From Vitis vinifera (Eukaryota > Streptophyta > Magnoliopsida > Vitales > Vitaceae): a DNA stretch of 64,000 nucleotides. Location of the stretch: positions 23,722,501 through 23,786,500 of the forward strand of contig NC_081810.1 in assembly GCF_030704535.1 (NCBI RefSeq), given 5' to 3'. The position numbers and the translations under genes are program-made. The notes beneath the pieces were generated by a model. That model saw only the letters and a program-made list of their open reading frames with translations. It did not search any database and was not told where the DNA came from. Below, piece by piece: positions 4,901 through 61,810 of this stretch (the first letter of the stretch is position 1; each line of letters opens with the position of its first letter).

Positions 4901-4946
4901 CTCACTCTTTTTGGTTTTCTCATATATGAGGGTTTCTTCACCTTCA

Positions 4947-4954
4947 TTTTTATA
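4947..4954 (-). promoter_or_regulatory. TATA box of the small secreted protein gene
   Basis: On the minus strand the sequence reads TATAAAAA, 46 bp upstream of the chosen ATG. Transcription would start roughly 20 bp before that ATG, giving a very short leader. Confidence 0.5.
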
Positions 4955-8310: not shown

Positions 8311-9743
<1,433 letters not shown>

Positions 9744-12444: not shown

Positions 12445-13179
12445 GAATAGAGTTATTCCATCATTGCTAATTTGTTCTTTGGCATGATCATTTAAATTTT
12501 TTTCCTTTTCCTTCGCACTTGAATAATTACCCTTCTCCCTTTAGAAGGGGTATGTAATGGTTCAGCTTTCCCAATTTTCTTTCCTTTCTACTCACTCAAA
12601 ATTTCACCAACTATATGCTCAGTACAACAATCACTTCTGCAGGTTAGGATAAGAAAATAGCAAGAAAAGAAAAGATGAAGTGCTAGTTTTCCCCACCTCA
12701 CAGGGTGCTTGAGATTCTCCACTGACCGACGGAGATGACTGGATTGATCTGGCAAGATTATGGGCAGAAAACTCTCAGACCAAATAAAGAAAAGAGAAAA
12801 AAAAACTAACTACAAATTCATCACAAAAAAACAATGGTGTTTTCATATCTTGTGCTTTTTATGTCCACTTTGACAAATATTTCTCATTAATTATCAGGGT
12901 GACAAGATCAACAGGATTGGCCTAGGGTCCTCCCGAGCTCAACTTCAATGGGAATCCTAATATCTTAGTCAGTGCTAGTGAGTTAACAAACATCCAGGGG
13001 TGGTGAGGCAATTTAGAGGTTCATATAAGTAAATTGGCTATAGAGGTATGGCCAGATTTTGATACATACCATCCCCAATCCAAAAAAACCTTTATATGTA
13101 TAAGTTCTGGGAAGATTTGAGGAAAATGAGGGGAAGAAAATTTGAATGAAAGAAGAAGTGATGAAGAATAAAAAATAGG
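12445..13179. other. Intergenic region after germin-like pair 1
   Basis: The 3' flank of the germin-like gene, then low-complexity A/G-rich sequence. No gene is supported. Confidence 0.45.
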
Positions 13180-14127
13180 TTAAATGTAATAAATTGTTGT
13201 AATGAACAAAATAGTAATAACCAAAAAATAATGACGAGAATATTGAGAGAGATCGAGAATTAATTGAAATAATACAAATACAAGACGCAAATAATGTATG
13301 TGGTTCAGGAAATCCCCTTCATCCACAGGCAGGATCGCATCACTTATTATTATTAAACCAGAATTGCACAAAGTTTTTCTTCTTCATCACAGTGTTTCAT
13401 AGTGTTTCCTAGAGATTAAAAAACACCAATCCCTCTCAATGTACTAGAAAACTTCGAACCAGAAAAAAGTCTCCCACATTTCTATCGGCTTTTTTTAAAA
13501 AATATATGTGAAACTGCATAACATTAACACTATGACGGACTTGAAGTAACTTCGACACCAGATCTGATTTCCAATCACTTTTGCTCTAGTACTACAACTA
13601 ACTTCCATGTCATCATCTGACTTATTTGACATTATTTCAATCCAATTTCTGACAAAGCTCATATTTGGATCAAATCGTAACATATTGGTCCTGCTCTTCT
13701 TACCCCTTGGCAAGGCTTCTCAATGTTTTGACATTCACCAAATTCAAGCAATGCTTAAACTTGGTTCCAAGTAGCAACTTCGTTAGCATATGTGTAGGGT
13801 TATCTTCTGTGGTCACCTTTTTTTATCTCCATTGACTCTAAGCTATAATATCCTTGATAAAGTGAAGTCTTATGTTAATGGGCTTTGTTCCCTCATAGAA
13901 CATTTGGTTCTTTGAGAGACAGATATCACTTTCGTTGGGATAATAAGTCATACTTATATGTTGGTAATTTTGTTCTTTTTTATGTTTGATCATAAAAGTC
14001 TTTTTAGATAGTGAGAAGATCAAATGCAGTTGTTTGTCCAACCAAGACGTCATAGGTATATGTCTAAAGAGGTTTGGCTTATAGCAAATTAGGCTCTTTT
14101 GAAATATAAAAAGGTTTGGTATCATTT
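13180..14127 (-). mobile_element. Ty1/copia pol fragment and LTR remnant (fossil)
   Basis: On the minus strand, about 13600-14000 resembles the end of a copia RNase H domain. Recognisable words are DICLSKN, FYEGTKPI and LHFIKD, followed by THMLTKLLLGTKFKHCLNL. The DNA beyond it toward 13180 looks like LTR sequence. Broken and old. No complete LTR pair can be seen. Confidence 0.6.
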
Positions 14128-15089
14128 TTAGACTTAAAATGTTTTTAAATGATTTTGCAAAAGAAATAGAGGCCGCTCAAGTGGCTAATCCTACTCAAGC
14201 AATCAGCTCGCTCAAACGTTGTAAGTTCGCTCAAACGATCATGTCAATCCTACCGAGATTAGAAACAGATTTTGGATGAATTTCACTCAAACTCCATTTT
14301 GAAAACTTAAGATACTGAAACTCTTTGTGGTTTTCTCCTATAAATACCTCATTATAACCCCTTGAGGGTTAGAGATCTTAGAAATTAAGAGATCTCACTT
14401 TAGTTGAGAAGGTTTCATTGAGGGGATCCTTCTAGCAATTCCTAGAGAGAAAGTCTAATGTGCCACAACATTCTCACTCTCTCACTCAAAATTTTGATCT
14501 TTGATTATTGGGTTGAAAATCATCTTCCCTTCAAGGTGGCTAAAGGATCTACTAGGGAGCAACAGAAGGTTGTTGTGTTGTAAACGCAAATTAAGTTATA
14601 GGTATTGGAGAGTAAGCCTTTAAGATAAAGCAATTAGGTAAATCTATGTAATTTTGATTTTGAATAATGGATTTAAATTAGTGGTCTTAGACCTTATGGT
14701 TTTTTATCTCCATAGTTAGTATAAAGGTTTTCCACGTAAAAATCTTATGTCCCATCACATATCTTTATTCATGTTTATATTTTGATTGATTATATTGATT
14801 TCCCTTAATTGATTTGTTGGGTTGTTATTGAGTTTGTTATCATGGTTATTTTGGTAGTTATTATTCTCTAACATCTTTTATCCCTAACTAATTAGGATAT
14901 TTCTAAAAGGTAAAAACTTAGTTTTTTATAAATCTAAAGATTTTAGATATAACCCATTAAATTATTTAAGATACCTTTGATATCTATTAGATTAAAAGAA
15001 TTGGGTATAATATAAAAATATTTATTGAAAATATTTTAATCACCTATTCTCTCTCCCCTTCTAGTTGTTCTCTATTGGACTTTCAGTGG
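14128..15089 (+). mobile_element. LTR-like insertion (fossil, family uncertain)
   Basis: A segment with LTR character: a TATA-like box (CCTATAAATACCTC) near 14338, and an end of the form CTCTATTGGACTTTCA at about 15089, followed by a PBS-like GTGGTTTT. It lies between two diverged copies of one roughly 190-bp sequence (13941-14128 and 15116-15320). Borders are approximate. Confidence 0.35.
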
Positions 15090-15115
15090 TTTTTCAACTT
15101 TGACTACCATGTTAG

Positions 15116-15320
15116 GACATTGAGTCCTATTTATATGTTGACAATTCTATTTAAATTAATATTTGGTCATAGAAGTCTTTTTAGATAGTGACATGCTCTT
15201 CATTGAAGATCAATAATTGTTGTTCATCCAACCAAAAGTCACAAGCACATTTAAAAAGGTTTGGCTTGTGGCATATAAAGCTTCTTTGAAGTATAAAAAG
15301 GTTCAGTATCATTAGGAGCC
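15116..15320. repeat. Diverged direct copy of 13941-14128
   Basis: Shared words in the same order: ACTTATATGTTG versus ATTTATATGTTG, AGTCTTTTTAGATAGTGA, CATCCAACCAA versus TGTCCAACCAA, and AAAAGGTTTGGT versus AAAAGGTTCAGT. Both copies belong to the copia debris of this interval. The second marks either a duplication or a second fossil of the same family. Confidence 0.5.
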
Positions 15321-15554
15321 CAAATAAGAAGCTTAGGTAATGGCAATCTGTTCAGATGATAAGCTGGAAGGCTGATGCAATTTCACATGGCACAACGCAA
15401 AGTGACACCTAAGGTGCACGCGTCTTATCAAAACCAAGCAACCACATGGTCATCAACATGCAAGAGCGTAGAATAGATATTGAATGAGATATCAACAAAA
15501 AGAGCTTATGCTCTTAGATTGAATGAATCTAAAGATCTTTATTTGCCACAGAAA

Positions 15555-15558
<4 letters not shown>

Positions 15559-15612
<54 letters not shown>
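15559..15612. repeat. (AT)n microsatellite
   Basis: An uninterrupted AT dinucleotide run of about 54 bp, upstream of the 3' flank of the second germin-like pair. Confidence 0.9.
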
Positions 15613-15615
<3 letters not shown>

Positions 15616-15774
15616 GACATTGGATCATAAAGCAACAAGAAATATCAGTTCTTCCACAGAAGCAGCCTAAAATTAATGTTCAACATCAAATTCAACAGAA
15701 AAGATAACACAAAATGAATTGGAAGTATGGTGAAAGGCATTGAATCTCAATGAAAAACTCGGTGCTACTGCAAC

Positions 15775-16401
15775 CTAAGCCCTACCCCCAAGTCCTGCCT
15801 TGATCTTCTGAATGGTGGCAACATCGGTTTTGAAAGACTTGGCAAGGATTCCATCATCAATGCCAGTAGCAAATACAGAGGGAGGAACCGAGACGGTTCC
15901 AGCATTAGCACTGCCAAAGGCAGAGAGGGCGGTGGCCGGTTCTTTAGCATCAGCGTTGTATTGGAAGTGCACTAGTCCCTTGGGGAACACAAACATGTCC
16001 CCAAGTTGGAGCGTCTGAGTATAGAGTTTGTTGGCGGTATCAATGAAACCAACCACGAGAGTACCTTCCACAACAAACAGATGCTCTGCAGAACGGGGAT
16101 GGGTGTGAGGTGGGTTCACACCCCCTGCGGGATACTGGAGAACAGCGAAAGAGACACTTTGACCATTTAGAGCCGGAAACTCAGCTAGACCAGCTTTTGT
16201 TACCTTAAAGTTTGGTGGGACTGCGGAGTCAAATACCCCACGCATTCCAGTGAAGGTAAAGAAACTGCCATCAATGGCATTAGAATTTGCCGGGACTATG
16301 AAGTCTGACAAGATATCTGGATCGCTTGCTTGGGCAATCCAAGAAGTGGCGAAGACACCTATAGTGAAGAAAAGAACATGTCTGAGCATGGTCGAGGCCA
16401 T
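15775..16401 (-). CDS. Germin-like protein, pair 2 minus-strand member
   Basis: An intronless 208-residue secreted cupin, paralogue of 10367-10993 with about 23 differences by eye (roughly 89% identity). The signal peptide is residues 1 to about 25. Ligands H99, H101, E106 and H145 are intact, and there are no cysteines. It carries the more usual NPPHTHP in box 1 where its sister has NPLHTHP. It is divergently paired with 17125-17751. Intact. Confidence 0.92.
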   Translation of the reverse strand: MASTMLRHVLFFTIGVFATSWIAQASDPDILSDFIVPANSNAIDGSFFTFTGMRGVFDSAVPPNFKVTKAGLAEFPALNGQSVSFAVLQYPAGGVNPPHTHPRSAEHLFVVEGTLVVGFIDTANKLYTQTLQLGDMFVFPKGLVHFQYNADAKEPATALSAFGSANAGTVSVPPSVFATGIDDGILAKSFKTDVATIQKIKAGLGGRA

Positions 16402-17124
16402 TTAGTGATGCTTAGACGACTAGACCGTAAGAGAATATTGGATGACTACTATCTTGCCTTCGACCATCTATTTATATGGTGTGAGGTTTCAGCATTGTAA
16501 TGGCCGGCTGCATTTTATGTTCTCATGCTGCCGCCTCCTCGTTTATCACTCCTTACCAAAAAGCTAAGTTGGAAGAATTATGATTCTGCCGTCTTATAAA
16601 CCAGATCCATTCTCTTGTGAAATCTCTCTTCAACAAAGGCATTGCAGAAAACAGAGCCACGTTCTTATCATAGTGTAGTTTGATTTTATTGAATAGCAAC
16701 TCACTTTTTGTTTACTACCATCAACTATGGTGATGGCTACATTTTTTGTTATATCCCTTCTTTTATGGCCTTGGTTTTCCATATGTGGCAGTCTAATGTA
16801 AAAATGAGAACATGATAGGGCCAGTTTGGTATACCATACATATTGTCCGTCTAACTGGCCATACATAAATTCAGATCACTAATTGTTAGCATATTGTACT
16901 ACCAAATTGATAAAAACCAAGCAACTGCAAAACAATGACATTGTAATTTCCATCTCTAGTTGTCATTAAACCGGCCTGTGGACAAGGACAAGTACAAACC
17001 TTATTGCCTGTCCTCCACTCTCCATAAATAGTGCCCTCCTCCAAGTCCAAACACCTCATTCGGGTTTTTAAGTATCATAGAAATACCCCCACAAGGTACT
17101 CCACTACATTTCAAGCTCTCTACC
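16402..17124. promoter_or_regulatory. Shared divergent promoter of germin-like pair 2
   Basis: 723 bp, alignable by eye with the pair 1 intergenic region. The minus-strand gene has an ATATAAATA box near 16469-16477. The plus-strand gene has CATAAATA (about 17023-17030) where pair 1 has TATAAATA, so the first base of the TATA core differs. The sequence between this box and the ATG is otherwise strongly conserved between the pairs. Confidence 0.65.
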
Positions 17125-17751
17125 ATGGCTTCAAGGATTATCAGCCTTCTTTTTTCACTATTAGTAGCTTCATTTGCCATTGTCCAAATAGCAATTGCAG
17201 GGGATCCAGACATTGTCTCCGACTTCATAATCCCGCCCAACATGAGTGCTGTGGATGGTAACTTCTTCACATTTACTGGCATACGGGCTCTTGTGGGGGC
17301 ACCTGAGCCCACAACCTTCAAGGTTACAAAAGCGAGCCTAGCGGAATTCCCGGCTCTGAATGGCCAGAGTGTATCTACTGCTGTGCTTGAGTTCCCACCT
17401 GGTTCCGTCAATCCACCTCACACCCATCCTCGCTCTGCAGAGCTGCTTTTCCTCCTTGATGGTTCACTGCAAGTGGGGTTTGTGGACACAACCAACAAGC
17501 TCTTCACCCAGACACTTCAAGCAGGGGACATGTTTGCGTTTCCTAAGGGACTTGTTCATTTTCAGTACAATGTCGATGCAAAGAATTCTGCTGTTGCCGT
17601 CTCCGCTTTTGGCAGTGCAAATGCAGGAACCGTTTCACTCCCCAACACTGTGTTTGCCACTGGCATTGATGACAACATCTTGGCTAAGTCCTTCAAAACT
17701 GATGTCGCCACCATTCAAGCTATCAAGGCTGGTCTTGCACCCAAGCCCTGA
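17125..17751 (+). CDS. Germin-like protein, pair 2 plus-strand member
   Basis: An intronless 208-residue secreted cupin. The signal peptide is residues 1 to about 25 (ending AIAGD). Box 1 fits the classic G-x5-HTH pattern (GSVNPPHTHPRSAE) and box 2 is FPKGLVHFQYN, with ligands H99, H101, E106 and H145. No cysteines. About 34 differences from its sister at 11818-12444. One substitution, GDMFAFPKG in place of GDMFVFPKG, is mild. Intact. Confidence 0.92.
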   Translation: MASRIISLLFSLLVASFAIVQIAIAGDPDIVSDFIIPPNMSAVDGNFFTFTGIRALVGAPEPTTFKVTKASLAEFPALNGQSVSTAVLEFPPGSVNPPHTHPRSAELLFLLDGSLQVGFVDTTNKLFTQTLQAGDMFAFPKGLVHFQYNVDAKNSAVAVSAFGSANAGTVSLPNTVFATGIDDNILAKSFKTDVATIQAIKAGLAPKP

Positions 17752-26893: not shown

Positions 26894-29800
26894 GAGGTAT
26901 TGGTCAAGGTAATGGAGGTCGTTTCAATGCTGGAAACTTTGGTAGAGACAGAAATTTTAATGGAGGCAGAGGAAATGGTGGCAAATCTGACTGGAATAAC
27001 AACTGGAATAATACTGGCAAACCTCAATGCCAGCTTTGTCGAAGGTTTGGACATGAAGTTGAGAGGTGTTACTATAGGTTTGATCCAAGTTTTGTTAGTC
27101 CAACCTCCTCTTCTCAAAATAGTGGTGGTCCTCGTGCTTATTTCAGCCAAGCATCTCCTCATTCCTCAACTTTGTTTACAACACCTGAGGTGTTCAATGA
27201 TAACTCTTGGTACCCTGATTTTGGTGCTTCAAATCACTCTAAATGCTAATAATCTTCAACACAACACTGAATTTACTAGTCAAGACGAAGTACACATTGG
27301 TGATGGTTTAGGTTTATCAATTTCACGAGTTGGTCATTCTTCTTTACTTTCCTATCTTACTCCTAAGGTGCTCTCCTTAAATCACATGCTTTTGGTTCCT
27401 TCTATTACAAAGAATCTTCTTAGTGTTTCCAAATTTGCAAAAGGCAATAATGTCTTCTTTGAATTCCATTTTGATGCTTGTTTTGTTAAGGATCAGGATT
27501 CTCAGGTTGTTCTTCTTACCGAGAAAGTTAAAGATGGTCTATACTCATTTGATTCATCAAATTTGTGCCTTGCTCATCCATAAGCTACCTTCAACATTTT
27601 TCAATCATCCTCTGTTGTAAAAAGTTGCAATGTTCAAACCTGTACTGTTTCAAAGCCTTGTGATTCAATAAAGCCAAATGTCTTTGATCTTTGGCATGCT
27701 AGATTAGGTCATCCTTCTGTTAAAGTTGTAAAAACAATTCTTTCACAGTGTAATGTCCGTAATATCAATAAAATAACACCTTCATTTTGTTCATCATGTT
27801 GTTTAAGCAAAATTCATAAATTTCCATTTTCCAGATTTGAAACAATTTATACCGTTCCTCTACAATTGATTCATTCTGATCTATAGGGTCCAACTCCTGT
27901 CCCTTCAAGTAGTGGTTATAGATACTATGTTCATTTTGTGGATGCCTATTCTAAATTCACCTAGTTATATCTTCTTAAAAATAAATCTGATGTCATCCAA
28001 ACCTTTATCAATTTCAAAACTCAAGTTGAGCTTCAACTTGACTCCAAATAAAAGCTTTTCAATCTGATTGGGGTGGTGAATTTAGATCTTTTCAGTCATT
28101 CCTTACTCAACATGGTATCATTCATAGAGTGTCTTGCCCTCATACTCAAGAACAAAATGGAGTGGCTGAAAGAAAACATCGCCACATCGTTGAAAATAGT
28201 TTAGCCTTGTTAGTTAAATCTTCAATTCCTCTCAAATATTGGGATGAAGCTTTCAGAACTGTTGTGTTTCTTCATAACAGACTTCCAACTCCTATCCTGA
28301 AACAAAAATGTCCTTTAGAACTTCTCTTCAAAACCAAAACCAACTATTCCTTTCTAAAAGTGTTTGGTTGTGCATGTTATCCCAACACTCGTCCTTTTAA
28401 CAAACATAAATTGTAATTTAGGAGCACTGTTTGCACTTTTATGGGATACAACTTAAACCACAAGGGATATAAGTGCTTGGATTCAAATGGAAAGCTGTAT
28501 ATTTCTAGAGATGTTATATTTGATGAAACAACATTTCCATTTGCTCAAACTGATTAATCTTCCTATTCTATCCATAATTCCTCTTCATTGTCCAATTCTA
28601 CCCCATCTGCTAGTCCACCTGTTCTCACAGTCCCCTCTCAAACTCATTCTCATCCTATTTCACACTCATGTCCTGTTGTTACTTCCATTGACAGGCCAAT
28701 CAATGAGGTTGATTTACCTTCTGTTCCTAATGTACATTCTATTTCTCCAATAATTGATGTTGTTGTGCATAATATTATTTCTTCTAGTAATACTAATTTG
28801 AATAGAATGACAGGTCAACCAAGAGTTCAAGGGAACACTCATGTCATGACAACAAGGAGCAAAAATGGCATTGCCAAACCTAAAGTGTATATAGTAGCAG
28901 TAAAGGAACCGGAGACAGTTGAGTTGGCATTACAAAAGGATGAGTGGAAACAAGCCATGATATCTGAGTTTGAAGCTTTGCAAAGAAACAACACTTGGTC
29001 TTTAGTACCCTTGCCTGAAGGAAGAATACCTATTGGTTGTAGATGGGTCTATAAGGTCAAAGAAAATTCTGATGGTAGTGTCGGAAAATACAAAGCTAGG
29101 TTAGTAGCTAAGGGCTTCCATCAACAAGCTGGATTTGATTTTAATGAGACTTTTAGCCCAATTGTGAAACCAACAACTATCATGATTGTACTCACCATTA
29201 CCTTATCTAGAGGTTGGAGTGTCAGGCAATTGGATATAAATAATGCCTTTTTGAATGGTATTTTACAAGAGAAAGTGTTTATGTCACAACCTCAAGGCTT
29301 TTTGGATGAGAAACACCACGAATATGTTTGTAGGCAGCATAAAGCTCTCTATGGACTCAAACAGGCACCACGAGCCTGGTTTGAGAGACTTCACAAAGCA
29401 TTTCTGTAGTTTGGATTTGTCTCTTCCAAGGCAGATCAATCTCTCTTTTTCAGGATTACATCAACTCATACCACCTACATTCTTGTCCATGTAGATGATA
29501 TTTTGGTAACTGGAAGCAATACAGAGGTAGTAACTACTCTTATTAAACAATTGGATGTTGAGTTCTCTTTGAAAGATCTAGGAGAAATAACCTATTTTCT
29601 GGGCATTCGGGTTACTCATATAGTGAATGGATTTCATTTCTCTCAATAGAAGTATATAAGGAATCTTTTGGTGAAAACTAAAATGTTGTAGGCCAAGGGT
29701 CTTCCCACTCCCATGACTAGTGGCTTAAAGATTAGTTCACAAGATGGAGTTCCAATTGAAAATGCTCAGCTATACAGAAGTACAAAAGGAGCTTTACAAT

Positions 29801-33569: not shown

Positions 33570-34205
33570 ATGAGCGCCACCGCACCCACCCGTCTTCGCT
33601 ACCGCAGAACTCCTTCCTCCGACAGGTTTCTTGACGTCTTCTCCCATCCCCTACCACGCTCCTCCCTTCCTGGACCTACCAATCCCGAGGCCGGCGACGA
33701 GCTCCACGAAGACGAAATCTTCTGGATCGGAGGCTTTGATGACCCTCCCAACACTGCCCCTGCTCGGAACCCCCTCTCCAGGCGCTGCGGCGCCCAGGGG
33801 ACCTCTGGCATCCTTGCAGCATTGCCGGAATCGGAACGGAGCCTAGGTGCCTATGGCCGTCCGATGTTCAACCAGAAGGCGTCGTCTTCCCGGATGATTC
33901 CGGCGATTCCGAAGCCGACAGTGGAGCGCCATGTGCCAGTATCCGCGAAGTATCACCAGTCAGCGCCAGTGAACGTTCCGGTGCTGTCGAAGGCGGTGCG
34001 AAGGGCGCACGAGATCAACGCTGACGACATCGATGATGGAGCGGAGGGGGAGATGTTGCCGCCGCACGAGATCGTGGCGAGGGGCTCTGAGCACTCGCCA
34101 GGACTGTCCTGCTCGGTTCTTGAAGGCGTGGGGAGGACGTTGAAGGGGAGAGATCTGCGTCAGGTTCGCAATGCGGTGTGGCGGCAAACAGGTTTTCTTG
34201 ATTGA
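33570..34205 (+). CDS. S40 family senescence regulator (DUF584)
   Basis: An intronless gene for a 211-residue protein of the plant-only S40 family (senescence_reg, DUF584), thought to act in the nucleus in leaf senescence and stress responses. The N-terminal third is Pro/Ser/Arg-rich and contains the family word EIFWIGGF (about residues 49-56). The C-terminal block is the family signature: LPPHEIVAR, then SVLEGVGRTLKGRDL, ending RNAVWRQTGFLD. The coding region is GC-rich and stands out sharply from its AT-rich surroundings. No signal peptide or membrane segment. The chosen start is the first ATG of the frame, preceded by CTACATG. A short upstream open frame (33370-33420, MADDLASLRGESNSHV) may lie in the leader. 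Intact. Confidence 0.9.
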   Translation: MSATAPTRLRYRRTPSSDRFLDVFSHPLPRSSLPGPTNPEAGDELHEDEIFWIGGFDDPPNTAPARNPLSRRCGAQGTSGILAALPESERSLGAYGRPMFNQKASSSRMIPAIPKPTVERHVPVSAKYHQSAPVNVPVLSKAVRRAHEINADDIDDGAEGEMLPPHEIVARGSEHSPGLSCSVLEGVGRTLKGRDLRQVRNAVWRQTGFLD

Positions 34206-48290: not shown

Positions 48291-50560
48291 TGTTAAAGAT
48301 TTGATTCAAATTATTTATTTTTTATTTTTAAAAAAATAAATATTTATACAATTTATTTATTTTTGGCAAATTACCTTTTTAAGTTTAACTAGGATTATGA
48401 AACTATTGGTTTAGGGGTTAACCCATAAGAATCTATAAATATGTGACTTTATGTAAGATTTTAAGAGAGAAGGAAAAAATTTGTAAATAGTGAAAAGAGG
48501 TAGATAAAGGATATATTGGATTTTGGGTACATAGAACAAGGTTGAGAGAGTTTGAAGTGCGTGTTTTTAAAGTTTATTAATGATCTCCCTTTTCCGTGGA
48601 TGTAGGTAATTACACTAAGCCACATAATTATTTTGTCTTCTCTAATTTATTTTATTTTTTGTGTTGTATTTTAATATTGTGATTTTCCCAATAAGTGGTA
48701 TTAGGGTCGTGATGTGAAGATTGTGGAAAAATTGTTTTGAAGATGATGTTAGATATTGATATAATATTGAGTCATTTGATGGAAAGGAAAAATTTTAGTA
48801 ATTGACAAGGTACTGTTAAGGATGTTTTACTGTTACAAGGACTTCTTAATGCTTTACAAAGCAAGAAACAAGAGAAAATAATAAATAAAGAATGAGAAGA
48901 ATGAAAAGTAAGAGCCATAAGTATCATTTGTTTAAGTCAAACTCTTGAAATAAAGTATAGTGTTTTGAATGAGAAATCTTTTTCTAATTTATAGAAGTTA
49001 GAAAAAAATTATATATCAAAATCCCTAACAAATAGACTATATTTGACGGAGTAACTATTTGAGTTAAATATGGATAAAGGAATGAATATTAGAAATCATA
49101 TAAATAAATTTAATAAGTTCAACCCCCAATTATTGAGTGTAAATGTTAAGATTGATAAGAAAAATCAAAGTATTACTTTGTTGGCATCTCTACCAAAATC
49201 ATATAATACAATGGTGACTATGTTTTTAATTAGAAAGACAACATTTTTTGCGGATGAGGTGTCAACTACTCTTTAAAGACAAAAAAATATTAAGCAACCG
49301 AGTAGTTCATCTTATACTGAAAAACCTCTTATGATAAATTCTTAATCACATCATGGAAGAAGTAAAATGCGAGGAAGATACTATGATAGGAGTGATAACC
49401 AATCTTCATTACACTTCTATAATTATATGGAGTGTTATTATTACCACAAAAAGGACATATTAGAAGATACTATGAATAATTGACAAAGCACCTAAAAATA
49501 AGGAAAATATTAAATCCAATGAGACTTTAGATTTTACGAATATTGTTGATGAAGAGTTTGATGAGAAAGATAATGTTCTTCATGTTGGATTTTAGCTTTT
49601 GGATTCTTGATGTTCTTTTCATATATGCTCATATAGGAAATGGTTTGATACCTACAAGAAATGCGATGCTAGTACTGCTCGAATAAGCAATGATTCAAGC
49701 TCTAAAGCCATTGGGATTGGTAACGTAAAAGTGAAAAATGTTTAGTGGTGTTGTCAAAACATTAACTAGTGTTAAACATGTTCCTAATTAAGTTAAGGAG
49801 TTTAATTTCTATGGGATTTTGGATACTCCAAGTTATGTTTTTTTCTATAAAGAATGATATAATGAATATTAAAAAAAGGTATTTTGATAGTTATGAAATA
49901 GAAAAAAGGTGAAAAAAATTATACACCTTGATTGGACGGAGATGAAGGCGGAACCACACCATGTAAAGTCTTTTGCTAGTGTTAAACATGTTGTCAAAGT
50001 AGATGAATGTGATATCCAAACTCTGTTTTTGATTAAAAGTACTCTTTTGCACAAGGATGAGATTAATCGTAAAAGCAAGGGAGTTTTGAAGAAAACAAAA
50101 ATAGTTTATACAGTCAAGCCCGATGAGAGTTTGCACTTGACAAATGTTTATGTTAACCATACAAGATTGAGATAATTTGAGTCAAAATAGAGATTGTTGG
50201 AATTTGACTCAAAAATTTTATTTTTTATTTTTAGGAAACTCAATATTTATAAAGTTTGTATTTTGGTAAATTACTTTTTTAAGTCTAACTACTATTAGGA
50301 AACTATTGGTTTAGAGTTAACCCATAAAACCCTATAAATATGTGGTTTCTAGGAATGGCAATTTCGCGGGTTTCCCGGGTCACCCGCCCCGACCTGACCC
50401 GCCCCTATTGGGACGGGTATAAGAACATGGCAATCAGGGATGGGCCGGGTTCGGGATTTTTTTAAAAACCCGAATCGGGTTCGGGGCGGGGTCGGGTGTA
50501 GTTATAATTTGCCCCGCCCCGCTCCGCCCCGAATATGAAATTACTATTTTACCCCCCATG

Positions 50561-50568
50561 TATAAATA
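50561..50568 (+). promoter_or_regulatory. TATA box of the hAT transposase gene
   Basis: TATAAATA about 211 bp inside the left end of the hAT element. Downstream comes a T/C-rich leader and a probable non-coding exon ending at 50766 (AAACTG/GTAAGA). An acceptor just before the coding start (ATTAAG/AAAAATG, near 53562) would remove a leader intron of about 2.8 kb. The exon structure is inferred from consensus sites only. Confidence 0.5.
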
Positions 50569-51717
50569 TTAGTTTCCTCTCCTCATTTTAGGTCTTCTTC
50601 TCTCAGTTCTCATTCCTGTCGACGCTAGGGTTTTTCCTCCCACTCAATGGAGAAATCCATCAGATAATCCATTCGAAAATCCATTTCCTCTCGATTCATC
50701 CTTGTTTATCCCATATTCACAAGAAATCAAGAATCACAACTATTATCTTCACGTATCTACAAACTGGTAAGATTTTTTGTTGATTTTTTGGTTGAATGAT
50801 GCCTTGATTTGGTGTTGTATTCCGTTTCTAATTCGGGCAAGAGATACGAGATTTAGGATTTTTCCATTTCCAGTTTCAGATTATTGAAGGATTTTTTTTT
50901 CTATTAGTTTTCGGGTTGCTATTTAGGGTTTTGAATCCGTTTCTTGCGAATCTTAATAGGGGCTAAGCAGTATTTTTTATTGATACGAAACCTTTTTTTT
51001 AATTTTTTATTGATTATATGAACTTGTCAGATTGGATGTTTACTCTTTTTCCCTTTCAACACGAACCATTCTTTTTATTGATTGAATGCTTTCAGATTGG
51101 ACTTTAAAAGAGGATACAATCTTTCGAAGTGGATCATTTGAAGTCTTGACCGAAAACGGTGTGGCACCATTTGATGGATGATTTGAAATATTCATTGAGA
51201 TTGGTGTTATAATTTCATACGTGGAACAAATCATTCCTCTTTTATTCTAAAATATCCATGATTTCAAGGTTGATATGTGGAATTCTCAATTTCTGATAGA
51301 TTGGCATAAGCCCGTTTGGGTAAGTAATTTGGCTTTATAATTTTAATTTAATTAACTGTATACACAGTATGCCTATAATTCCAGAGGAGAAGAAGGAAGA
51401 ACAAAGATTTAATCTTATTTGCTATATCGTGGCATGTTGGGGGAATAATGGCATTAACTCTACTTTATTGTTATTATTATGTTATATATATGTGTGTGAG
51501 AGAAGATATACTTTGAAGTTGGTATTTGATGGCTAGGAATTTGATGCAACTAATATAAACTTTTATGGGTGGATTGGAATAGCTTTGAATAAGCATAGTT
51601 GCCTTGATTGGCAGTAATCTGATCATTTGAACTCTTTGTTAGTAATTAACGTCCCTAGATTTGTCAGTAATTTGTAAAAAAATTTAGGACATACATAGTT
51701 GTATTTTTTTAGCCTCT

Positions 51718-52260
51718 GAATCTGTTGGTGTTTTGTCTAAATTGGTTAACATTGTAGTGCAAGTACATTGTTACTTCCAAGCTTTGCACATTTAACAAAT
51801 GTTATAGTAGGCCACTCAACATACTGATGGCATGCTGCTATGTTGGACGGTAAAGTATTACCTACTGCATGGAAGGTATTGGGAACTTGAAAGGCTTGGG
51901 TTAAAGAATGTTTGATTTATTGAAGAATTTGAGGGAAAATAGGAGGGAACAGAGAACTGGGACACATAGAAATATAGTATATGCTACCAATATGGATAAG
52001 GACTAGAAAACACAAAGTAAATTGAAACCACATTGTGGGCTACATAACAAATTGAGGGACATGTTGTAGGTACCAACGGAAACTTAAACTTACATGACAA
52101 AATCAATGAAAGTGATTCTTAGAGAGAGTTATGTCTGAATCTGTTGGTGTTTTGTCTAAATAATCCTAGTGCAAGTACATTGTTACTTTCAGGCTTTGCA
52201 CATTTAACAAATGTTAATAATAGGCAACTGAACATACTGATGGCATGCTGGTATGGATAA
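51718..52260 (+). repeat. Direct duplication in the hAT leader intron
   Basis: A block of about 125 bp (AATCTGTTGGTGTTTTGTCT to GATGGCATGCTG) occurs at about 51718-51840 and again at about 52136-52250, with few changes. A GGATAAG.ACTAGAAAACA word follows each copy, at about 51994 and 52255. This is an internal duplication of the transposon. Confidence 0.7.
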
Positions 52261-53566
52261 GAACTAGAAAACAAGAAGTAAATTTATAGCAGTCTTTTTG
52301 CGCCCTTCTTTTTTTTTTTTTTTTGTTTTTTTGTTTTTGTTTTTGTGTGTGTTCTTGGTTGGATGGGGGCACACATCTCTGCTGGGTTGGCTTTTATGCG
52401 ACCAAGGGGTGAGTGTTACCTCACATGTATTATATGCTGATGACATCACAACCTTTTTTTTTTCGGTGTAGAGATTGAGTAGCTGGGATAGCTCAGATGT
52501 TTTGTCTTCCCTTTTTAGGCTGCTGCTGGGTTGAAGGTCAAATTAGGAAGGAAAAAAATAAATAAATAATAAAGATGCTGGGAACTTCTAGATAAAGGGA
52601 ACTTCAGTGTATAGTTTATCTTGCATTGTTTTGGATGGTTTGGAGGGAGGGGAATGTGAGAATCTTTTTTTGGATAAATGGAGGACCTTAGAATACATTT
52701 GGTATTTGATAGATTTCTATTCATCCTTCTCCCTCTTCAATTTTTGGGGGTACTCCATTGAATATTTAACTTAATTGGGATATGGTTTGTAGGTCAAAGA
52801 GGGTTGGTTGTAAGACCCTTTTAGTCTCAACTCTACCTTGTTTGGGTTTGATTAAGTTAAATTTCTCTAACTAGTGCTTCTTTTCCCTTTGAACATGTAC
52901 TATGCATTCCATCAATGAACCCATTTCTAGTGCGTATCACACTAAGATACAATCTAATGACACTAATATTCATGTGCTTTTTACTAGTAACTATAACAAA
53001 TGAGTCATTTGCTCTTGTTTAATTTTTATGAAACTGCCACTTTTGCTTCCATGTTAAATCCTATTCAATATTTTTCAGCTGTATGTGTTTTGTGCTAGTG
53101 GTCTCCATATTGTGCCATTCAATATAGAATTATTCTTCCGTAAAATTCTTTTGTCTTTAGAGAATTTGATTTTCAAATTTTGTCCGTTAATAGTTTTGAT
53201 ATTGGTTAAATATTCCTAATTTCAAGGTTTTGTTTTGTTTTCTGGTTATTACTTTTTAGAATATTCTTTGTTTGCTTTTGTTTGCTTTGTTTTCTGTTTT
53301 TTTTTATTTTCTTCTTATTTTCTTCTCACTTGCTGTGGGTTGTCCATATAAACTGCATGTGTCTTTCGGTTGCACTGCCCTCGATGCTTTTCTATTACAT
53401 TTATTTTCCTATTAATGGAAACTATGTTGACATCTTGCAATTCTTGGAGGTTAACCTAAATACAATCTTGCCTTTTAAACCCTTGCTTCAAGCCCTATCC
53501 AAGCTTTAGGTTATTAATTTAGGTTTGAATGTTTTACTTATAGACTTTATTTGTTCATTAAGAAAA

Positions 53567-55731
53567 ATGACATCAGAAGAAGGGGAAAACTTTTCCATGC
53601 CAAGTGCGGGTTCAACTCCAATTACAGGCAGTACTTCAACTACTGATGGAACCTTGGTATCTAAAAGAAGAAAGTTGACTTCGGTTGTTTGGAATGATTT
53701 TGATAAAATCATAGAAGATGGACAAGATTATGCTATTTGTAAGCATTGTAAGGGAAAGCTTAAGGCCGATAGCAAGAATGGGACAAAACACTTACATGTA
53801 CACATAGATAGGTGCATGAAACGAAGAAATGTTGATATTAGGCAACAATTATTGGCAGTAGAGAGAAAAGGTCATGGAAAAGTTCAAATTGGTGGTTTTA
53901 CCTTTGATCAAGAAATGTCAAGAGAGAAGCTTGCACGTGCAATTATATTGCATGAGTACCCACTTTCAATCGTTGACCATGTGGGGTTTAGAGATTTTGC
54001 TACTAGTCTCCAACCCTTGTTTAAGATGGTTTCCCGCAATACGATTAAGGGTGATATAATGAAGATTTATGAGGTTGAGAAAGATAAGATGATTAGCTAC
54101 TTAGAGAAACTTCAAAGTAGAGTTGCTATCACAACTGATATGTGGACATCAAATCAAAAGAAAGGCTACATGACTATCACTATACATTACATTGATGAGT
54201 CTTGGTTACTACACCATCATATTGTAAGGTTAGTTATGTTTTTTTTTTTTAACTTCCAAAGTGTTTTTTTATTTGATCCTTTAATGATATTGTTTGTGTT
54301 AATGATATTTTTTATTCTTAATTTAGGTTTGTTTATGTGCCTCCTCCACACACAAAAGAAGTTCTTTCAGATGTATTAATGGATTTCTTGTTGGATTGGA
54401 ATATGGATAGAAAAGTTTCTACAGTCACTGTGGATAATTGCTCAAGTAATGACGGAATGATCAATATCTTGGTGGAGAAATTATGTTTGAGCGATTCACT
54501 CTTATTGAATGGAAAATTTTTCCACATGCGATGTGCGGCACATGTGTTGAACTTAATTGTTAAGGAAGGTTTGGATGTCATTGAAGTAGAAATTGAAAAA
54601 ATTCGTGAGAGTGTTGCATATTGGTCAGCAACCCCATCAAGAATGGAAAAGTTTGAAGATGCAGCTCGCCAATTGCGTATTCCATGCAATAAGAAGTTAA
54701 GTCTTGATTGTAAGACACGATGGAATTCCACATACTTGATGTTATCAATTGCTATAACATATAAAGATGTGTTCCCACATTTGAAGCAACGTGAAAAATA
54801 CTACATGGTTGTGCCAACAGAGGAAGAATGGAATATGGCAAAGGAAATATGTGGAAGATTGAAATTGTTTTACAACATAACAGAGTTGTTCTCAGGACGA
54901 AATTATCCCACTGCAAATACTTTCTTCATCAAAGTGTGCGAAATCAAAAAGGCATTGTATGATTGGTTGATATGCTCAAATGATGTTGTGAAAACGATGG
55001 CATCAAGTATGTTGCAAAAGTTTGACAAGTATTGGAGTGGGTGTCATATTGTGATGGCAATAGCAGCTATATTTAACCCAAGATACAAGATAAAGATTTT
55101 AGAGTTTTACTTTCCACTAATGTATGGGTCTGAAGCTTCAAATGAGATAGAAAAAATCTGTGGAATGTGTTATGAGTTGCTTTCTGAGTATCAATCAAAG
55201 TCTAATTTGGGGCAAAAAACTTCATCCTATGGCACTTCATCAGGTTCAACTCTTTTGGAGTTAAACTATGATGAACAAGATCCTCTTTCAAAGTTTGACT
55301 TATTTGTTCATAGTACCATTGGAGAAAGTCATACGAAGTCGGAGTTAGATTATTACTTAGAGGAGTCTATTCTGCCAAGGAATTCAAATTTTGATGTTTT
55401 AAGTTGGTGGAAGACAAATGGTATAAAGTATCCGACTTTGCAGATGATTGTTCGTGATATCTATGCTATTCCGGTATCTACAGTTGCATCTGAGTCAGCC
55501 TTTAGCACGGGTGGTAGGGTGGTATCAAAACATCGCAGTAGGCTTCATCCAGATACTTTGGAGGCCTTAATGTGTGCTCAAAGTTGGTTATGGAAGGAAA
55601 AAGAAGGTAACCGATTTACATAATTATCAATTTTATGAATTGTTTTTTATTAAAATATTTAGTAAAGTTTTCTAATAATTTTTTTTGGTGTTTTTTTCTT
55701 ACTAGGTGATTCATCAATTCATGACTCATAG
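53567..55731 (+). CDS. hAT transposase (3 exons)
   Basis: Catalyses cut-and-paste movement by recognising the element's ends. Exons: 53567-54228, 54327-55606, 55706-55731, giving 655 residues in one open frame. An N-terminal BED zinc finger lies at residues 42-88 (C58, C61, H79, C83). The RNase H-like core shows D191 in ITTDMWTS, D257 in TVDNCSSND, C290/H293 in MRCAAHVLN and E610 in VASESAFSTGG, which match the hAT catalytic DDE and CxxH positions. The C-terminal hAT dimerisation region runs from about residue 575 (LSWWKTNG) to 645. A basic patch (SKRRK, 32-36) may be a nuclear signal. The third exon adds only DSSIHDS. Without that last intron the frame would still end soon after, with NRFT. 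No defect is visible. Confidence 0.92.
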
Positions 55732-56414
55732 CCCCAACTCACAATGATGGATGAAAATGATGATTTACTTGTACGTTAGATTTTTTACTTAAGATGATGT
55801 TAGAGACATTTTTTCTTTCTTTTTTGCTAACAATTTCTTTGTAATGTCTTTTTTTTTATTTTTTTTCAATGTTGTTAAGCTTATGGATTTATTTTAATTT
55901 TGGATATTATATTTTGGCATGTCTTCTATGATGTTAATTACCATGGTTGTAACTAAGAACCACATTCTTTACAATCAAGTTCAAGACTTGCAAGGTAGAG
56001 TCCTTGTAAGGAAATGTTATAGATGAGACGCTAGGTTGCAGCCAGTCAGTTCCTTTGGATGATTGCAGCTCAACCCTGATAATCACCCATCTTGGCTGGG
56101 GGTGCAGCTGAGCTATGGTTGATCTTTTGGGGCATTTGGGTGGAGATCTTTCTCTTTGTGGATGGATATATAGTAGGATAGTCTCCTGCTTCATGCTAAG
56201 TAAGCACCATCTCCCTCTCACAAAGATATATAGTAGGTTGTCAAACTGCCCAAGGTAAGCCTATTTTCTTTCTTTCTCCTTTTATTATGGTGAAATTCCT
56301 TCATATTCAGCATGCTAGAAAAAGTTACAAATCTTCTATTTGTTAAATAGAGAAACAATTCTTCTTTCCTTATAAAGGCTTGCAATATTTGGAATGGTTG
56401 TGGTGTGTATACAG

Positions 56415-56609
56415 GGGCTTGACACAATGGTGGGTGAACATGGAACTCAGCTATCTGGGGGACAGAAGCAAAGAATTGCAATTGCAAGAGCCATTTTGAA
56501 GAACCCACGAATCTTTCTTCTTGATGAAGCAACAAGTGCACTGGATGCTAAGTCTGAACGCATCGTCCAAGATGCACTAGTAAATGTGATGGTAAATCGA
56601 ACTACTGGT
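56415..56609 (+). pseudogene. Captured exon of an ABCB (P-glycoprotein) transporter
   Basis: An open exon encoding [20 protein letters not shown] and the Walker B region [20 protein letters not shown], ending at VNRTT. It is the ABC signature to Walker B part of a nucleotide-binding domain of plant ABCB transporters. It starts right after an acceptor (ATACAG). A short piece ending KLPK/GTAAGC at 56254 may be the tail of the preceding exon. The rest of the transporter, about 1,200 residues, is absent, so this is a fragment inside the hAT element and not a working gene. Confidence 0.9.
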
Positions 56610-57569
<960 letters not shown>

Positions 57570-57616
57570 GTAAATTAATTAATATGCTACCTTTTGTATT
57601 TTTGTGGTTTTTGCAG

Positions 57617-58847
57617 GCTCTGGCAAAGCTGGTCGCAGTTTGTGGTCCCTACCATCGAATGACAGCAGGAGCTTATAGCCTCCTTGCTGTAGTTTTGTAT
57701 CATACGGGGGACTTCAATCAGGTCCATTACGAGTCCATTTTGTCTTGGTGTTCATGGAATCTTCTCTGTTATAGAATAATAAATTTGTTGTCTTTCTCAA
57801 TGTTCTGTTAAACTATTTCTAGAACTAGGACTTGATCATCCAGACACGATGAAGAGTTATGGAGATCTTGCTGTGTTCTATTACAGACTTCAACACACTG
57901 AATTGGCTCTCAAGTATGTTGGTCTTGTGTAATGCACTATTGACTTTTCATGTATTATTCATAAACATTTGTGCTTTCTTGCTTGAAATTTCAGCAGTCA
58001 AGTTATATTGTTTTTCCCTTTTTTTGATACTTACCATTTTTTTTGTTCCTACTGGAACTCAAACTTGAAACCTCCCTTCTTTATTGTTGTTGTCATTTAG
58101 TTTTTTTTTTTCACTAAATAAGATGATATTGTCATTTATTACTGAGAGTCTGACATGAATAAAAGGGAAATGGCTATGCCAATTAGTTTTTTTAAACCTT
58201 TATTCTGACACTGTTTGAATGATAATTTTGTTAAATCAAGTCCCAATTATATGCAGTGGAAACAATTGAGGAATTTTATTTGACTAAAGATTATGAAGGA
58301 TGTTGAATCAAAGGTTTCAACATGTGGACTGTACTTTAGAAATAATATATTAGCTTGTCTTCCACATTACTTACCATTAGGATTATAGGAGGAACTATTG
58401 CTTCTATAGTGATTCCATTTTGTTCTATTAGGTTTCAGCAACATGCTTCACTTTTTATATTGTTTGAATGCTAAATCATAGGTTTTTTTTTAATTAACTT
58501 GAAAATAACATCCCGTCTAATCATAACTTTTTCTGTAAGTTATCATGCTTTTGCCAAAATGTTTTAAGCGATGTAAGACGCAGAATTCTATACTAGCCTG
58601 TTTATCCATGGCCTTTTTGCTTCCATTTGATTTTTACCCCTGGCCACATTTTTCATTGATCAGATATGTAAAACGTGCACTATATCTTCTACATCTCACT
58701 TGTGGCCCATCTCATCCAAACACTGCTGCGACATATATCAATGTGGCTATGATGGATGAAGGCCTTGGACATGTGCATGTGGCCCTCAGATATCTTCATA
58801 AAGCTCTAAAGTGTAACCAAAAGTTACTTGGTCCAAATCATATTCAG
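57617..58847 (+). pseudogene. Captured exons of a TSS/REC (CLU-like TPR) protein
   Basis: Three exons in correct order and phase: 57617-57721 ([20 protein letters not shown]), 57829-57913 ([20 protein letters not shown]) and 58664-58847 ([20 protein letters not shown], then [20 protein letters not shown]). They match the tetratricopeptide block of the large plant CLU-like proteins TSS/REC. The family has roughly 1,400-1,900 residues, and only about 125 are here. All three exons stay open with usable splice sites (CAG/GTCC, CTCAA/GTATG, TTCAG/GTTCC). It is downstream of the citrate synthase pieces in the same orientation, so a read-through chimeric transcript is possible but unproven. Confidence 0.9.
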
Positions 58848-60984
58848 GTTCCTCCCTATTTTAGCTTCTTCCTGTCTTTTATTTTTTTGTTTATTTTTTT
58901 TCCATTTATAATATAGTCTTTTGATTTATAGTTGATGATGGAATGAAATATTTTATCTAGTGTGAGTTGGAACATGGATTACTTTGATATATTGAATGGG
59001 AACATGGTGTGTGCTTACTTTGTGGTATGACAAGGGTAGGCTCATTGAACACTCACTTTGAATGTGGTTGGTTTGAAAGTGCTTTTCTTTTTTTCTTTTT
59101 TCCTTTTTTGGTTTTTTTTTAAATGTATCAAGCACTTTTAGTTCATAATTTTCTCAAAGATGCGTGGGAGCCTGTTATTAAATAATGAATTATGTAGAGT
59201 GTAATTGTGTAAGATCAAGTTTAACTATGTGCTCTTATCGTGCTCAAGTTTCTACCTGCCCCTACCCACAACTCTGTTATTGTTGTTGTAATTGTTTTAT
59301 TAGAAGGAAGATAATTCGTTGCATTGAACTTGGTGAGGACAATGAAGGACGAGAAATCCTTCCAAGATTTACAGAACTGATAAAAAAAGAGCCTGGTGTG
59401 CTGTTTTTAATACTATTTTTATTTTTTCAGTTGTTATTAATATAGTAGTACTTTTACTACCATTACACTAATGGACACTGCCTTGATATCTTTTAATGGA
59501 AGTTCTGTTTGTGTTTATTATAACTATGCCAGAGTTTCTTATTTGCTATACCATAGAAGGGGTGTAATTGTAATCTTCCCTGTTTTAGACCCAATAATCT
59601 TATTTGCTATATTATAGGATGTTGAGCTTGTAATGGTTTTTCCCCTCTTCATTTTTTTCCAAAAAGAGCATCTCTTTTATGCTTAACTTAATGGTACTAA
59701 ATGGCTTATTAGCTAGGGGTTTTCTCTTAGGATCTGATTCTCCAGTACAGATTGAAGATATGTATTCTGCACAGTAGGGAATCAATATTGTTTATAAGCA
59801 TAATCTGTGCCATAAGGCTAAAGTTATCCAATGATTCTATTGGGGTTGCTTCTGCTCAACTGTAAGCTTGGGGCTTTGCCTTCTTTCCCAAATACATGTA
59901 ATAGGATAGAAAAGTTCACATGTTACCATGTTGATAATAATATACTGCACCTGCACATAAGGACACAGCTTGCTCTTTTCCTGTCACTCTTTTCATCATG
60001 ATTATTAAGACCAAAAAGTATATCGAATCCCTTTTTGTTTGAATAGAATGTTGTCTTTTGCATCACACCTTCGATTTATCCCATGTAGCCCTTTATTTCA
60101 GTCAAGAATTTCAGCAAATAGCCCCACTGTTTATGGATAAAAAGGACAGGCCAATTCTTTATTATATATCTTATAATTGCATGTTTCTTGTGTATCTTGT
60201 TGGGTTATAGAATTTGTTGTGCTGAGATTGCTTTTTTACTTGATTGGTTCATCAAACTAAAAACCTGGATAGAACCTTCTCAATATGCTATATAAATTAA
60301 GCCTACTTTTCAGTGTTGGCTTGTATTTTTATCCTCAGTTGGATCTACCTATCTGCCTGATTACCACCCTATTACAAGTAACTTCACTTAGATTGCAGTC
60401 TTAGAGACTATAAAGAATTCTGTGTAGATGTGTGCCAACTACTGTTCTTCTGAACTGGGGAATTTGTAATCCTACCATAGGTTGTAAGTTTTGGGTCTGT
60501 AAAACTAATTAGTTTATTACCAAATTATCTATGCATTTTGCTGATGTAAGTCTCATGTTTCTCTTCATGTTTATTATGATTGTTCAAGGTTGTAACAATG
60601 AATTCCTCTTGTTTATATGTAGGACCTCTGAACAAGGCTCTTCTAGTACGTATAACTTGCATTGAAAGCTCTCTTAGATATTCAAAGTTTTTCATCCACC
60701 TATTTCTCACATACTAAAGTAGAGATACTTCATATTGTTCTTCTGAGGTCAATCATTGTTGTGAAAGAATGGAATCATCTGTGTTGCCTTTGGAGTTCAA
60801 TGGGAACACTGATCGGTGCATAATTCAAAGTGCAGTGTCGCAATCTGTCCAAAGCAAAGTTTCTGGAGCTGTGGATGCTTCTGCTTCTGAGGTGTCTATA
60901 CATGAATGTTTTAGGCCCACATCAATGTTTGAGAAACAGGCTAAGGTGGATGCCATACTTATAAATTTTTGTATTATTCCTTGA
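58848..60984 (+). other. Rest of the captured region: two exon-like segments not recognised
   Basis: Within otherwise AT-rich intron-like DNA, two stretches look coding. About 59303-59396 encodes IIRCIELGEDNEGREILPRF and continues to KKEPG, followed by a GTGTGC donor-like site. About 60769-60945 starts at an ATG (MESSVLPLEFNGNTDRC) and runs to SMFEKQAK before a GTGGAT. I do not recognise either. They may be pieces of a fourth captured gene or the hAT element's own DNA. Confidence 0.4.
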
Positions 60985-61810
60985 ACTTGCTTCCAGAAAT
61001 AATCTGGATTTGAATAGCTTGTAATGGGCATTTGGTTTTTTGTTCATCATCATCAAGCCTTTTATTGGCAATTTATCTGTGCTGACAAATACAGAACAAC
61101 TAGTTTTGGTAGTTTGAATTAGTTTGTCTAATTTCTTTAGTTTTGCTTTCCCTTTCTTGTTTTGGATTTGTTTTCTAAGTAGAAACTTGACTGGTTATAT
61201 GGGCTGGATCTGTGGGTGTGATTTCAGATTTTGATTTTTCTGTTTTATGCTGTCATGCTTGGGAAGATTCAGTTGTTTTGATGGACATTGCTCATGTTGG
61301 TTGGATTGTTTATCACAAGGGTGAGGTACAGGGCAGGCATAACAGGCTATGGATTCCAACCCAGCCCCGCCCCCCCCCCCCCCGAAAACACATACCCGGG
61401 TCGGGACAGGCCGGGGATGGGATTTTAATTTTAACCCTATAACGGGGACGGGAATGCCCCGCCCCGCCCCGCCCCAGGTTTGGGACGGGTTGGGAAATAA
61501 CTAAATCTAATTGGGAAGGGAATGGAATAGGGGTGACCCGTCCCAAACCCGCCCGTTGCCATTCCTAGTGGTTTCATATAAGATTTTAGAGAGAAGGATC
61601 AAGGGAACTAAGTGAAAGAAATAGGAAAAAAGTGTATTGAGATTTGAGTAGAGAAAGGTTGAGAAAGTTTGACAGGAGTATTTTTAAATTTTATTAATGA
61701 TTTCATTTTCCTGTGGACACACAAGATTACGTTAAACCAAGTAAATCTTTTATCTTCTCTAATTTGTTCTGTTTTTCATTCTACGTCTAGGTATTGCAAT
61801 TTTCCTAACA

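What the first reader, a model, noticed from the sequence alone, without database searches (positions are those of the whole stretch)
50350..61567. An 11.2-kb hAT transposon has captured fragments of at least three unrelated host genes
The sequence shows exact 8-bp duplications (GTGGTTTC) and inverted ends around a complete-looking transposase. Past it lie exon-intron pieces of an ABCB transporter, a peroxisomal-type citrate synthase and a TSS/REC TPR protein, all in the transposase's orientation. Introns are kept, so capture was at DNA level. Gene capture is well known for Pack-MULEs, Helitrons and CACTA elements. A large, apparently autonomous hAT element with three or more captures is much less usual.
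Basis: partly seen in the sequence, partly recalled or inferred. Interest (0 to 1): 0.9.

Follow-up and report, generated by a model that had tools for sequence, protein, structure and literature searches.

The report
Plant transposon layering stolen gene pieces
An 11.2-kb plant jumping gene with a complete-looking transposase carries copied pieces of at least four other places in its own genome, and sister copies show that such pieces were added one after another, some inside earlier ones; this kind of element is already known, but the layers make the process unusually easy to read.

Summary
A hAT element (50350-61567) has exact 8-bp duplications, exact 12-bp inverted ends and an uninterrupted 652-aa transposase. 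Downstream lie intron-containing pieces of an ABC transporter, a citrate synthase and a TPR (TSS/REC-like) gene; their donors lie on three other chromosomes (aligned pieces 94.5-98.4% identical). The transposase has 40 scored matches in the genome, 30 at 92% or more; 4 of those 30 were found to carry all three pieces. Sister copies imply an order: TPR and ABC pieces first, citrate synthase across their joint, then a PII piece inside the citrate synthase, then an A_thal_3526 piece replacing parts of both. Divergence from the donors mostly falls in that order (2.00, 1.64, 1.47, 0.7-1.0, 0.32%), with overlaps and exceptions. Of 12 joints, 8 show 1-5 bp microhomology and 4 show 1-8 untemplated bases, and no buried inverted end lies in the window element, which fits templated break repair better than fusion of neighbouring elements. 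All 12 gene pieces recognised downstream of the transposase lie in its sense. The kind is known (grapevine Hatvine-6, Benjak et al. 2008): a new member of a known kind, unusually clearly layered.

The parts
50342..50349 (+). left target-site duplication GTGGTTTC
   Evidence: read
61568..61575 (+). right target-site duplication GTGGTTTC
   Evidence: read
50350..50361 (+). left terminal inverted repeat TAGGAATGGCAA
   Evidence: 12 of 12 match with the right end
61556..61567 (-). right terminal inverted repeat
50350..50970 (+). 5' region common to the family
   Evidence: about query 1-621, matched in many copies at 86% or more
50982..52137 (.). captured segment from C8:23189702-23190853, gene unknown; shared with copies C3, C1, C16a, not C16b
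   Evidence: 21/1152 substitutions
52134..52284 (.). second, more diverged partial match to the same C8 donor (86% and 91%)
53567..54228 (+). transposase exon 1, start codon at 53567 (predicted)
54327..55623 (+). transposase exon 2 with stop (predicted); 652 aa in all; PF14372 and PF05699
56238..56607 (+). captured ABC transporter piece; donor C10:9574615-9574984, 98.4%
56609..57567 (+). captured citrate synthase piece; donor C12 near 178607-179575 (minus strand), 95.7% with gaps, 14/950 substitutions
57563..59896 (+). captured TPR (TSS/REC-like) gene piece; donor C15 near 20910352-20913701 (minus strand), pieces 94.5-98.0%; three internal deletions at 57821-57824, 58317/58318, 58368-58372
59897..60761 (.). 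segment shared at least in part with copies near C9:0.90 Mb, C18:10.66 Mb and C16b; donor not found
60759..61075 (.). 3' segment shared with several further family copies
   Evidence: query 1900-2216 in five more places, parts of it in others
61357..61567 (+). right subterminal GC-rich region and end, shared with sister copies
50202..50341 (+). LTR sequence left of the insertion (extent from the alignment)
   Evidence: aligns with 48299-48659 across the unoccupied site
61576..61776 (+). the same LTR, right of the insertion

Best explanation
This is a potentially autonomous hAT transposon of a multi-copy family whose interior is rewritten by templated break repair. Shown: intact ends, duplications and transposase frame; matching donor genes elsewhere in the genome; sister copies whose captures nest in one consistent order; divergence from donors that broadly falls in that order; joints with microhomology or short untemplated bases. 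Inferred: after excision or breakage the gap is copied back from a sister or homologous template, the copying strand leaves that template inside the element, copies a stretch of an unrelated gene, and is rejoined, often deleting part of an earlier capture. Because ends and transposase survive, the altered copy jumps again and later repairs add further layers.
For: Copy C16b has ABC (donor 2116-2724) joined directly to TPR (donor 1530-5648), with no match to the citrate synthase donor; the window, C3, C1 and C16a have citrate synthase across that joint with both neighbours trimmed. C3 has a PII piece filling a gap in the citrate synthase; C1 and C16a also have an A_thal_3526 piece in place of the rest. 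Substitutions: TPR 66/3308 (2.00%), ABC 10/609 (1.64%), citrate synthase 14/950 (1.47%), PII 21/2056 (1.02%, C3) and 9/1240 (0.73%, C1), A_thal_3526 9/2837 (0.32%). Twelve joints (7 between captures, 5 at deletions): 8 have 1-5 bp microhomology, 4 have 1-8 untemplated bases (for citrate synthase|TPR I take the exact 5 bp, because one search's rule tripped on a nearby indel). Overlap of 4 bp or more: 5 of 12, or 3 of 12 by exact matching only; random joins of the donors give 2.1%, so binomial P is about 3e-6 or 0.002. No inverted end within two mismatches lies inside the window element. Transposase frame uninterrupted in 7 of 8 copies read, the window included.
Against: Neighbouring divergence steps overlap within their errors; the clear steps are TPR against PII and PII against A_thal_3526. 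Exceptions: the right half of the citrate synthase in C3 is at 0.63% (2/315); the TPR stretch 1-1368 in C9 is at 1.32% (18/1368) and its first 468 bases in C10 at 0.43% (2/468) against 1.28% in C9, lower than one old shared capture predicts. Two-mismatch end-like 12-mers occur in sister copies at about the chance rate (0.8 per 11.2 kb), one of them, C16b 2416, about 30 bases from an upstream border, and C3 has a one-mismatch one inside its PII piece. Nothing shows directly that excision started the repairs. C1 lacks the right end and C3's left end has one change.
Confidence: 0.76

Rival explanations
1. Fusion of neighbouring insertions (macrotransposon): two elements inserted on either side of a gene segment, the outer ends were used together, and the segment was carried off.
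For: Proposed for Pack-TYPE elements, with hAT examples in maize (PMC8903248, passages). C3 has an end-like 12-mer with one mismatch inside its PII piece.
Against: No inverted end within two mismatches inside the window element. The C3 12-mer has no GC-rich subterminal sequence beside it and lies next to PII coding sequence. Donors are on other chromosomes; in the four donor stretches scanned (TPR, citrate synthase, ABC, C8) the best end-like matches have two mismatches; the PII and A_thal_3526 donors were not scanned. Captures sit inside earlier captures and abut to within a few bases.
Confidence: 0.08
2. Replication-fork template switching (FoSTeST-like), or end-joining of loose DNA fragments at breaks, not linked to excision.
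For: Gives the same joint signature; FoSTeST was proposed for multicopy animal Pack-TIRs (PMC8277862, passages).
Against: Nothing here separates it from excision-linked repair; repeated capture in a transposase-bearing family makes excision breaks the more economical source.
Confidence: 0.14
3. The captures are ordinary later insertions or segmental duplications, or an assembly artefact.
For: Copy C10 does hold a later high-copy insertion of about 1.67 kb, probably an LTR.
Against: The same mosaics recur in several copies with their own 8-bp duplications, and pieces end inside the element at defined joints.
Confidence: 0.02

Closest known systems
Hatvine-6 / hAT-6_VV of grapevine (Benjak et al. 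2008, PMC2528002; abstract, outline, passages)
   Same: hAT; copies share transposase and ends while the rest is unique or shared by few; the variable part matches genic introns and exons and non-genic DNA; variable length.
   Different: Printed as 13-bp ends and 9-bp duplication against 12 and 8 here; its sequence is not held here, so identity was not tested; no order of captures in the passages seen.
Maize Ds2 and Ds-l4 elements with gene fragments (PMC3260210; passages)
   Same: hAT ends; filler DNA with introns from genes on other chromosomes.
   Different: Ds elements depend on Ac; gene capture described there as rare for hAT.
Pack-hAT / Pack-TYPE elements of maize and rice (PMC8903248; passages)
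   Same: Captured coding DNA inside TIR elements.
   Different: Defined as non-autonomous; proposed there to acquire DNA through neighbouring insertions, which the joints here do not suggest.
Maize Helitrons (PMC3288121; passages)
   Same: Stepwise capture inferred from related copies.
   Different: Helitrons, a different transposon class (no inverted ends or duplications: recalled).
Animal Pack-TIRs (PMC8277862; passages)
   Same: Gap filling with microhomology at breakpoints; hAT the largest class (208 of 370).
   Different: Animals; the gap-filling model applies there mostly to single-copy cases.

Membership tests
hAT superfamily | 8-bp target-site duplication | tested here: met
   window and copies C16a, C3, C16b, C7; C1 could not show it, its right end being lost
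hAT superfamily | short terminal inverted repeats | tested here: met
   12 of 12 bp
hAT superfamily | transposase with hAT RNase-H-like and C-terminal dimerisation domains | tested here: met
   PF14372 E 3.3e-29, PF05699 E 1.2e-31
hAT superfamily | BED zinc finger | tested here: inconclusive
   no Pfam hit at 0.001; a Cys/His pattern is visible by eye near the N-terminus
Hatvine-6 | shared transposase and ends, variable interior with genic introns and exons | tested here: met
Hatvine-6 | 13-bp ends and 9-bp duplication as printed | tested here: not met
   12 and 8 bp here; printed figures. So not filed as Hatvine-6
Hatvine-6 | sequence identity to hAT-6_VV in Repbase | not testable with these tools
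   Repbase is not held; supplement look-ups are capped at 0
Pack-TYPE (Pack-hAT) | captured coding DNA between TIRs | tested here: met
Pack-TYPE (Pack-hAT) | non-autonomous, no functional transposase | tested here: not met
   uninterrupted 652-aa transposase frame; function not tested

The most novel reading that the evidence does not exclude
An autonomous hAT lineage works as a recorder: each round of break repair writes a new host-gene piece into or across earlier ones, downstream of the transposase and only in its sense direction, while transposase and ends stay intact, so that layer order and divergence date successive repairs. The sense-only pattern (12 of 12 gene pieces recognised in the window and eight sister copies, some read in part) would point to selection against antisense captures or to copying from transcribed templates.
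Probability: 0.3. Interest if true: 0.7.

Novelty: new member of a known kind. Interest (0 to 1): 0.47.

Why it matters
How cut-and-paste transposons pick up host genes is unsettled: fusion of neighbouring elements, or copying during break repair. Nested layers with identified donors and clean joints make that testable, and here they favour repair. The case also shows that an element can keep an open transposase frame while several kilobases of captured genes turn over, and it raises a simple, checkable rule about capture direction.

Tried and rejected
Fusion of neighbouring insertions was tested by scanning for buried ends and set aside as the main route. Capture from mRNA was rejected because introns match the donors. 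I first took the TPR pieces in C10 and C5 as an independent second capture; C9 links them to the C16b type, so one ancestral capture is preferred, with the low divergence of C10 left unexplained. Rfam gave 0 matches. The upstream C8 piece could not be tied to a gene. The donor search for C10's kinase piece was swamped by a high-copy insertion. Two antisense frames upstream of the transposase in C7 (233 residues with the joining XX) matched only CREPT, below its cut-off; they look like a coiled-coil NET-type protein (recalled, no call).

Limits of the sense count. Minus-strand frames downstream of the transposase were scanned with Pfam at 0.001: frames of 45 aa or more for C10 (1030 of 1030 residues), C5 and C7 (all of 1263 and 1255, in two calls), the window (all of 1373), the PII piece (460 of 508), the A_thal_3526 piece (659 of 843); for C9, frames of 42 aa or more, 451 of 1441; frames of 32-44 aa for C10, C5, C7, the PII and A_thal_3526 pieces (all) and the window (655 of 1223). 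None gave a family. A minus-strand set of C16b (659 residues) was printed but not scanned. On the plus side I chose frames partly by eye, some shorter than these limits (Ras-like 34 aa; PII pieces 31-38 aa; two TPR pieces), so the search was not fully symmetrical. P-II and KIP1 scored below their cut-offs; P-II is also borne out by its 99% match to a single other place, though that place's gene name rests on the same pieces. 12 of 12 has chance 1 in 4096 one-sided if captures are independent and equally detectable; some may not be.
Full report
What is there. The window is G000:C6:23722501-23786500 of a 495.6-Mb assembly in 21 contigs. No call names the organism; size, contigs numbered up to C19 in the hits and the fit to a published family suggest grapevine (inference). 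The element at 50350-61567 has GTGGTTTC on both sides, exact 12-bp inverted ends and a predicted two-exon, 652-aa transposase with hAT RNase-H and dimerisation domains. It sits in an LTR: the flanks, joined in a script, align across the junction with a 77.6% relative at 48299-48659 that has one 8-mer position there.

The family. The transposase DNA has 40 scored matches, out of 78 candidates, the window included: 30 at 92% identity or more and 10 at 84-86%; counts are lower bounds. ABC-piece DNA next to a transposase was found in five copies (window, C3:8.79 Mb, C1:12.98 Mb, C16a at C16:20.86 Mb, C16b at C16:21.69 Mb), citrate-synthase DNA in four of them, not C16b (one search scored 40 of 43 candidates). 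So 4 of the 30 were found to carry all three. TPR-gene DNA also occurs beside the copies at C14:18.86, C14:29.22 and C4:16.77 Mb, and its upstream part in C9, C10 and C5.

Donors. ABC: C10:9574615-9574984 (98%); citrate synthase: C12 around 178607-179575; TPR gene: C15 around 20.91 Mb; upstream piece: C8:23189702-23190853; PII: C7:4839862-4841368; A_thal_3526: C15:21303549-21305049. At the ABC|citrate-synthase and citrate-synthase|TPR joints the donor sequence runs on differently from the element.

Order of capture. In C16b the ABC piece (donor positions 2116-2724) is joined straight to the TPR piece (1530-5648). In the window, C3, C1 and C16a the ABC piece stops at 2485, a citrate synthase piece follows from 1425 (to 2393 in the window and, interrupted, in C3; only to 1745 in C1 and C16a), and the TPR piece starts at 2299 or 2313 with three shared deletions. 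In C3 the citrate synthase is interrupted at 1815/2079 by a PII piece that fills the gap. In C1 and C16a part of the PII piece is followed by an A_thal_3526 piece in place of the rest of PII, the right part of the citrate synthase and the edge of the TPR piece. Substitutions against donors: TPR 66/3308 (2.00%), ABC 10/609 (1.64%), citrate synthase 14/950 (1.47%), PII 21/2056 (1.02%) in C3 and 9/1240 (0.73%) in C1, A_thal_3526 9/2837 (0.32%) in C1. The C8 piece is at 1.82% (21/1152). Neighbouring steps overlap in error, and there are exceptions: 0.63% for the right part of C3's citrate synthase, and 1.32% for TPR positions 1-1368 in C9 and 0.43% for 1-468 in C10. C9 holds TPR positions 1-1368 and 1885-2329, which links the C10/C5 type with the C16b type; one old TPR capture, later overwritten in different ways, is the simplest reading, but C10's low divergence speaks against it.

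Joints. Twelve were read, 7 between captures and 5 at deletions: microhomology of 5 (citrate synthase|TPR), 5, 5, 5, 4, 2, 1 and 1 bp, and 1, 3, 3 and 8 untemplated bases. Two of the 5-bp cases need a tolerated mismatch. Random joins between donors give 4 bp or more in 2.1%; 5 of 12, or 3 of 12 by exact matching, have P about 3e-6 or 0.002. No inverted end within two mismatches lies inside the window element; sister copies have a few at about the chance rate, and C3 one with a single mismatch inside the PII piece.

Other copies. C7:3.61 Mb carries an L7Ae/S12e-family, a kinesin and a GATase_2 (glutamate-synthase-like) piece. Other genome places match these and neighbouring stretches at 96-100%; the kinesin piece is 100% over 811 bp to C19:21528527-21529337, and the GATase_2 stretch matches C12 and C16 about equally. 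So capture is recent. C10 has a protein-kinase piece whose DNA is shared with C5; APEH is found in C10 and C9, Ras-like and KIP1 in C5. The transposase frame has no stop or indel in six of the seven sister copies read; C10 has one stop. C9's transposase was not read.

Direction. The 12 distinct pieces recognised downstream of the transposase (ABC, citrate synthase, TPR, PII, A_thal_3526, L7Ae/S12e, kinesin, GATase_2, kinase, APEH, Ras, KIP1) are all in its sense; the minus-strand frames scanned gave no family (limits in Tried and rejected). A zinc-knuckle match in C9, also sense, was just under its cut-off and is not counted. Upstream of the transposase the rule may fail: C7 has long antisense frames there.

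Literature. Benjak et al. 2008 (PMC2528002; abstract, outline and passages) already report gene transduplication in hAT family Hatvine-6. The printed end and duplication lengths (13, 9) differ from those here, so I do not file this element as Hatvine-6, though it behaves alike. Gene fragments in maize hAT elements (PMC3260210, PMC8903248) and models of capture (PMC8903248, PMC8277862) were seen as passages; stepwise capture is published for Helitrons (PMC3288121, passages). In the listings and passages of my searches I saw no paper that describes nested, ordered captures with a sense-only rule in an autonomous hAT; only open-licence PubMed Central papers were searched, and most listed papers were not opened.

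Noticed in passing
window 51715-51842 and 52134-52255: Two stretches 87-89% alike inside the element, both matching the C8 donor at different divergence: perhaps two captures from one locus or from its paralogue near C8:23.2155 Mb.
   Followed up: partly
window 10370-17748: Three cupin-domain frames, in both orientations, within repeats 72-85% alike.
   Followed up: no
window 9264-9740: Peroxidase-domain frame near the cupin frames.
   Followed up: no
window 33570-34202: Senescence-regulator frame, profile PF04520 matched from position 2 to its end.
   Followed up: no
window 312-824 and 28588-29406: Gag-like and reverse-transcriptase frames of LTR retrotransposons.
   Followed up: no
G000:C1:12978972-12991217: Sister copy C1 stops matching at the equivalent of window 61325 and lacks the right end, although 99.5% alike to C16a up to there.
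   Followed up: partly
L081 (C10:15231108-15236800): A high-copy insertion of about 1.67 kb, probably an LTR, within the captured region of copy C10.
   Followed up: partly
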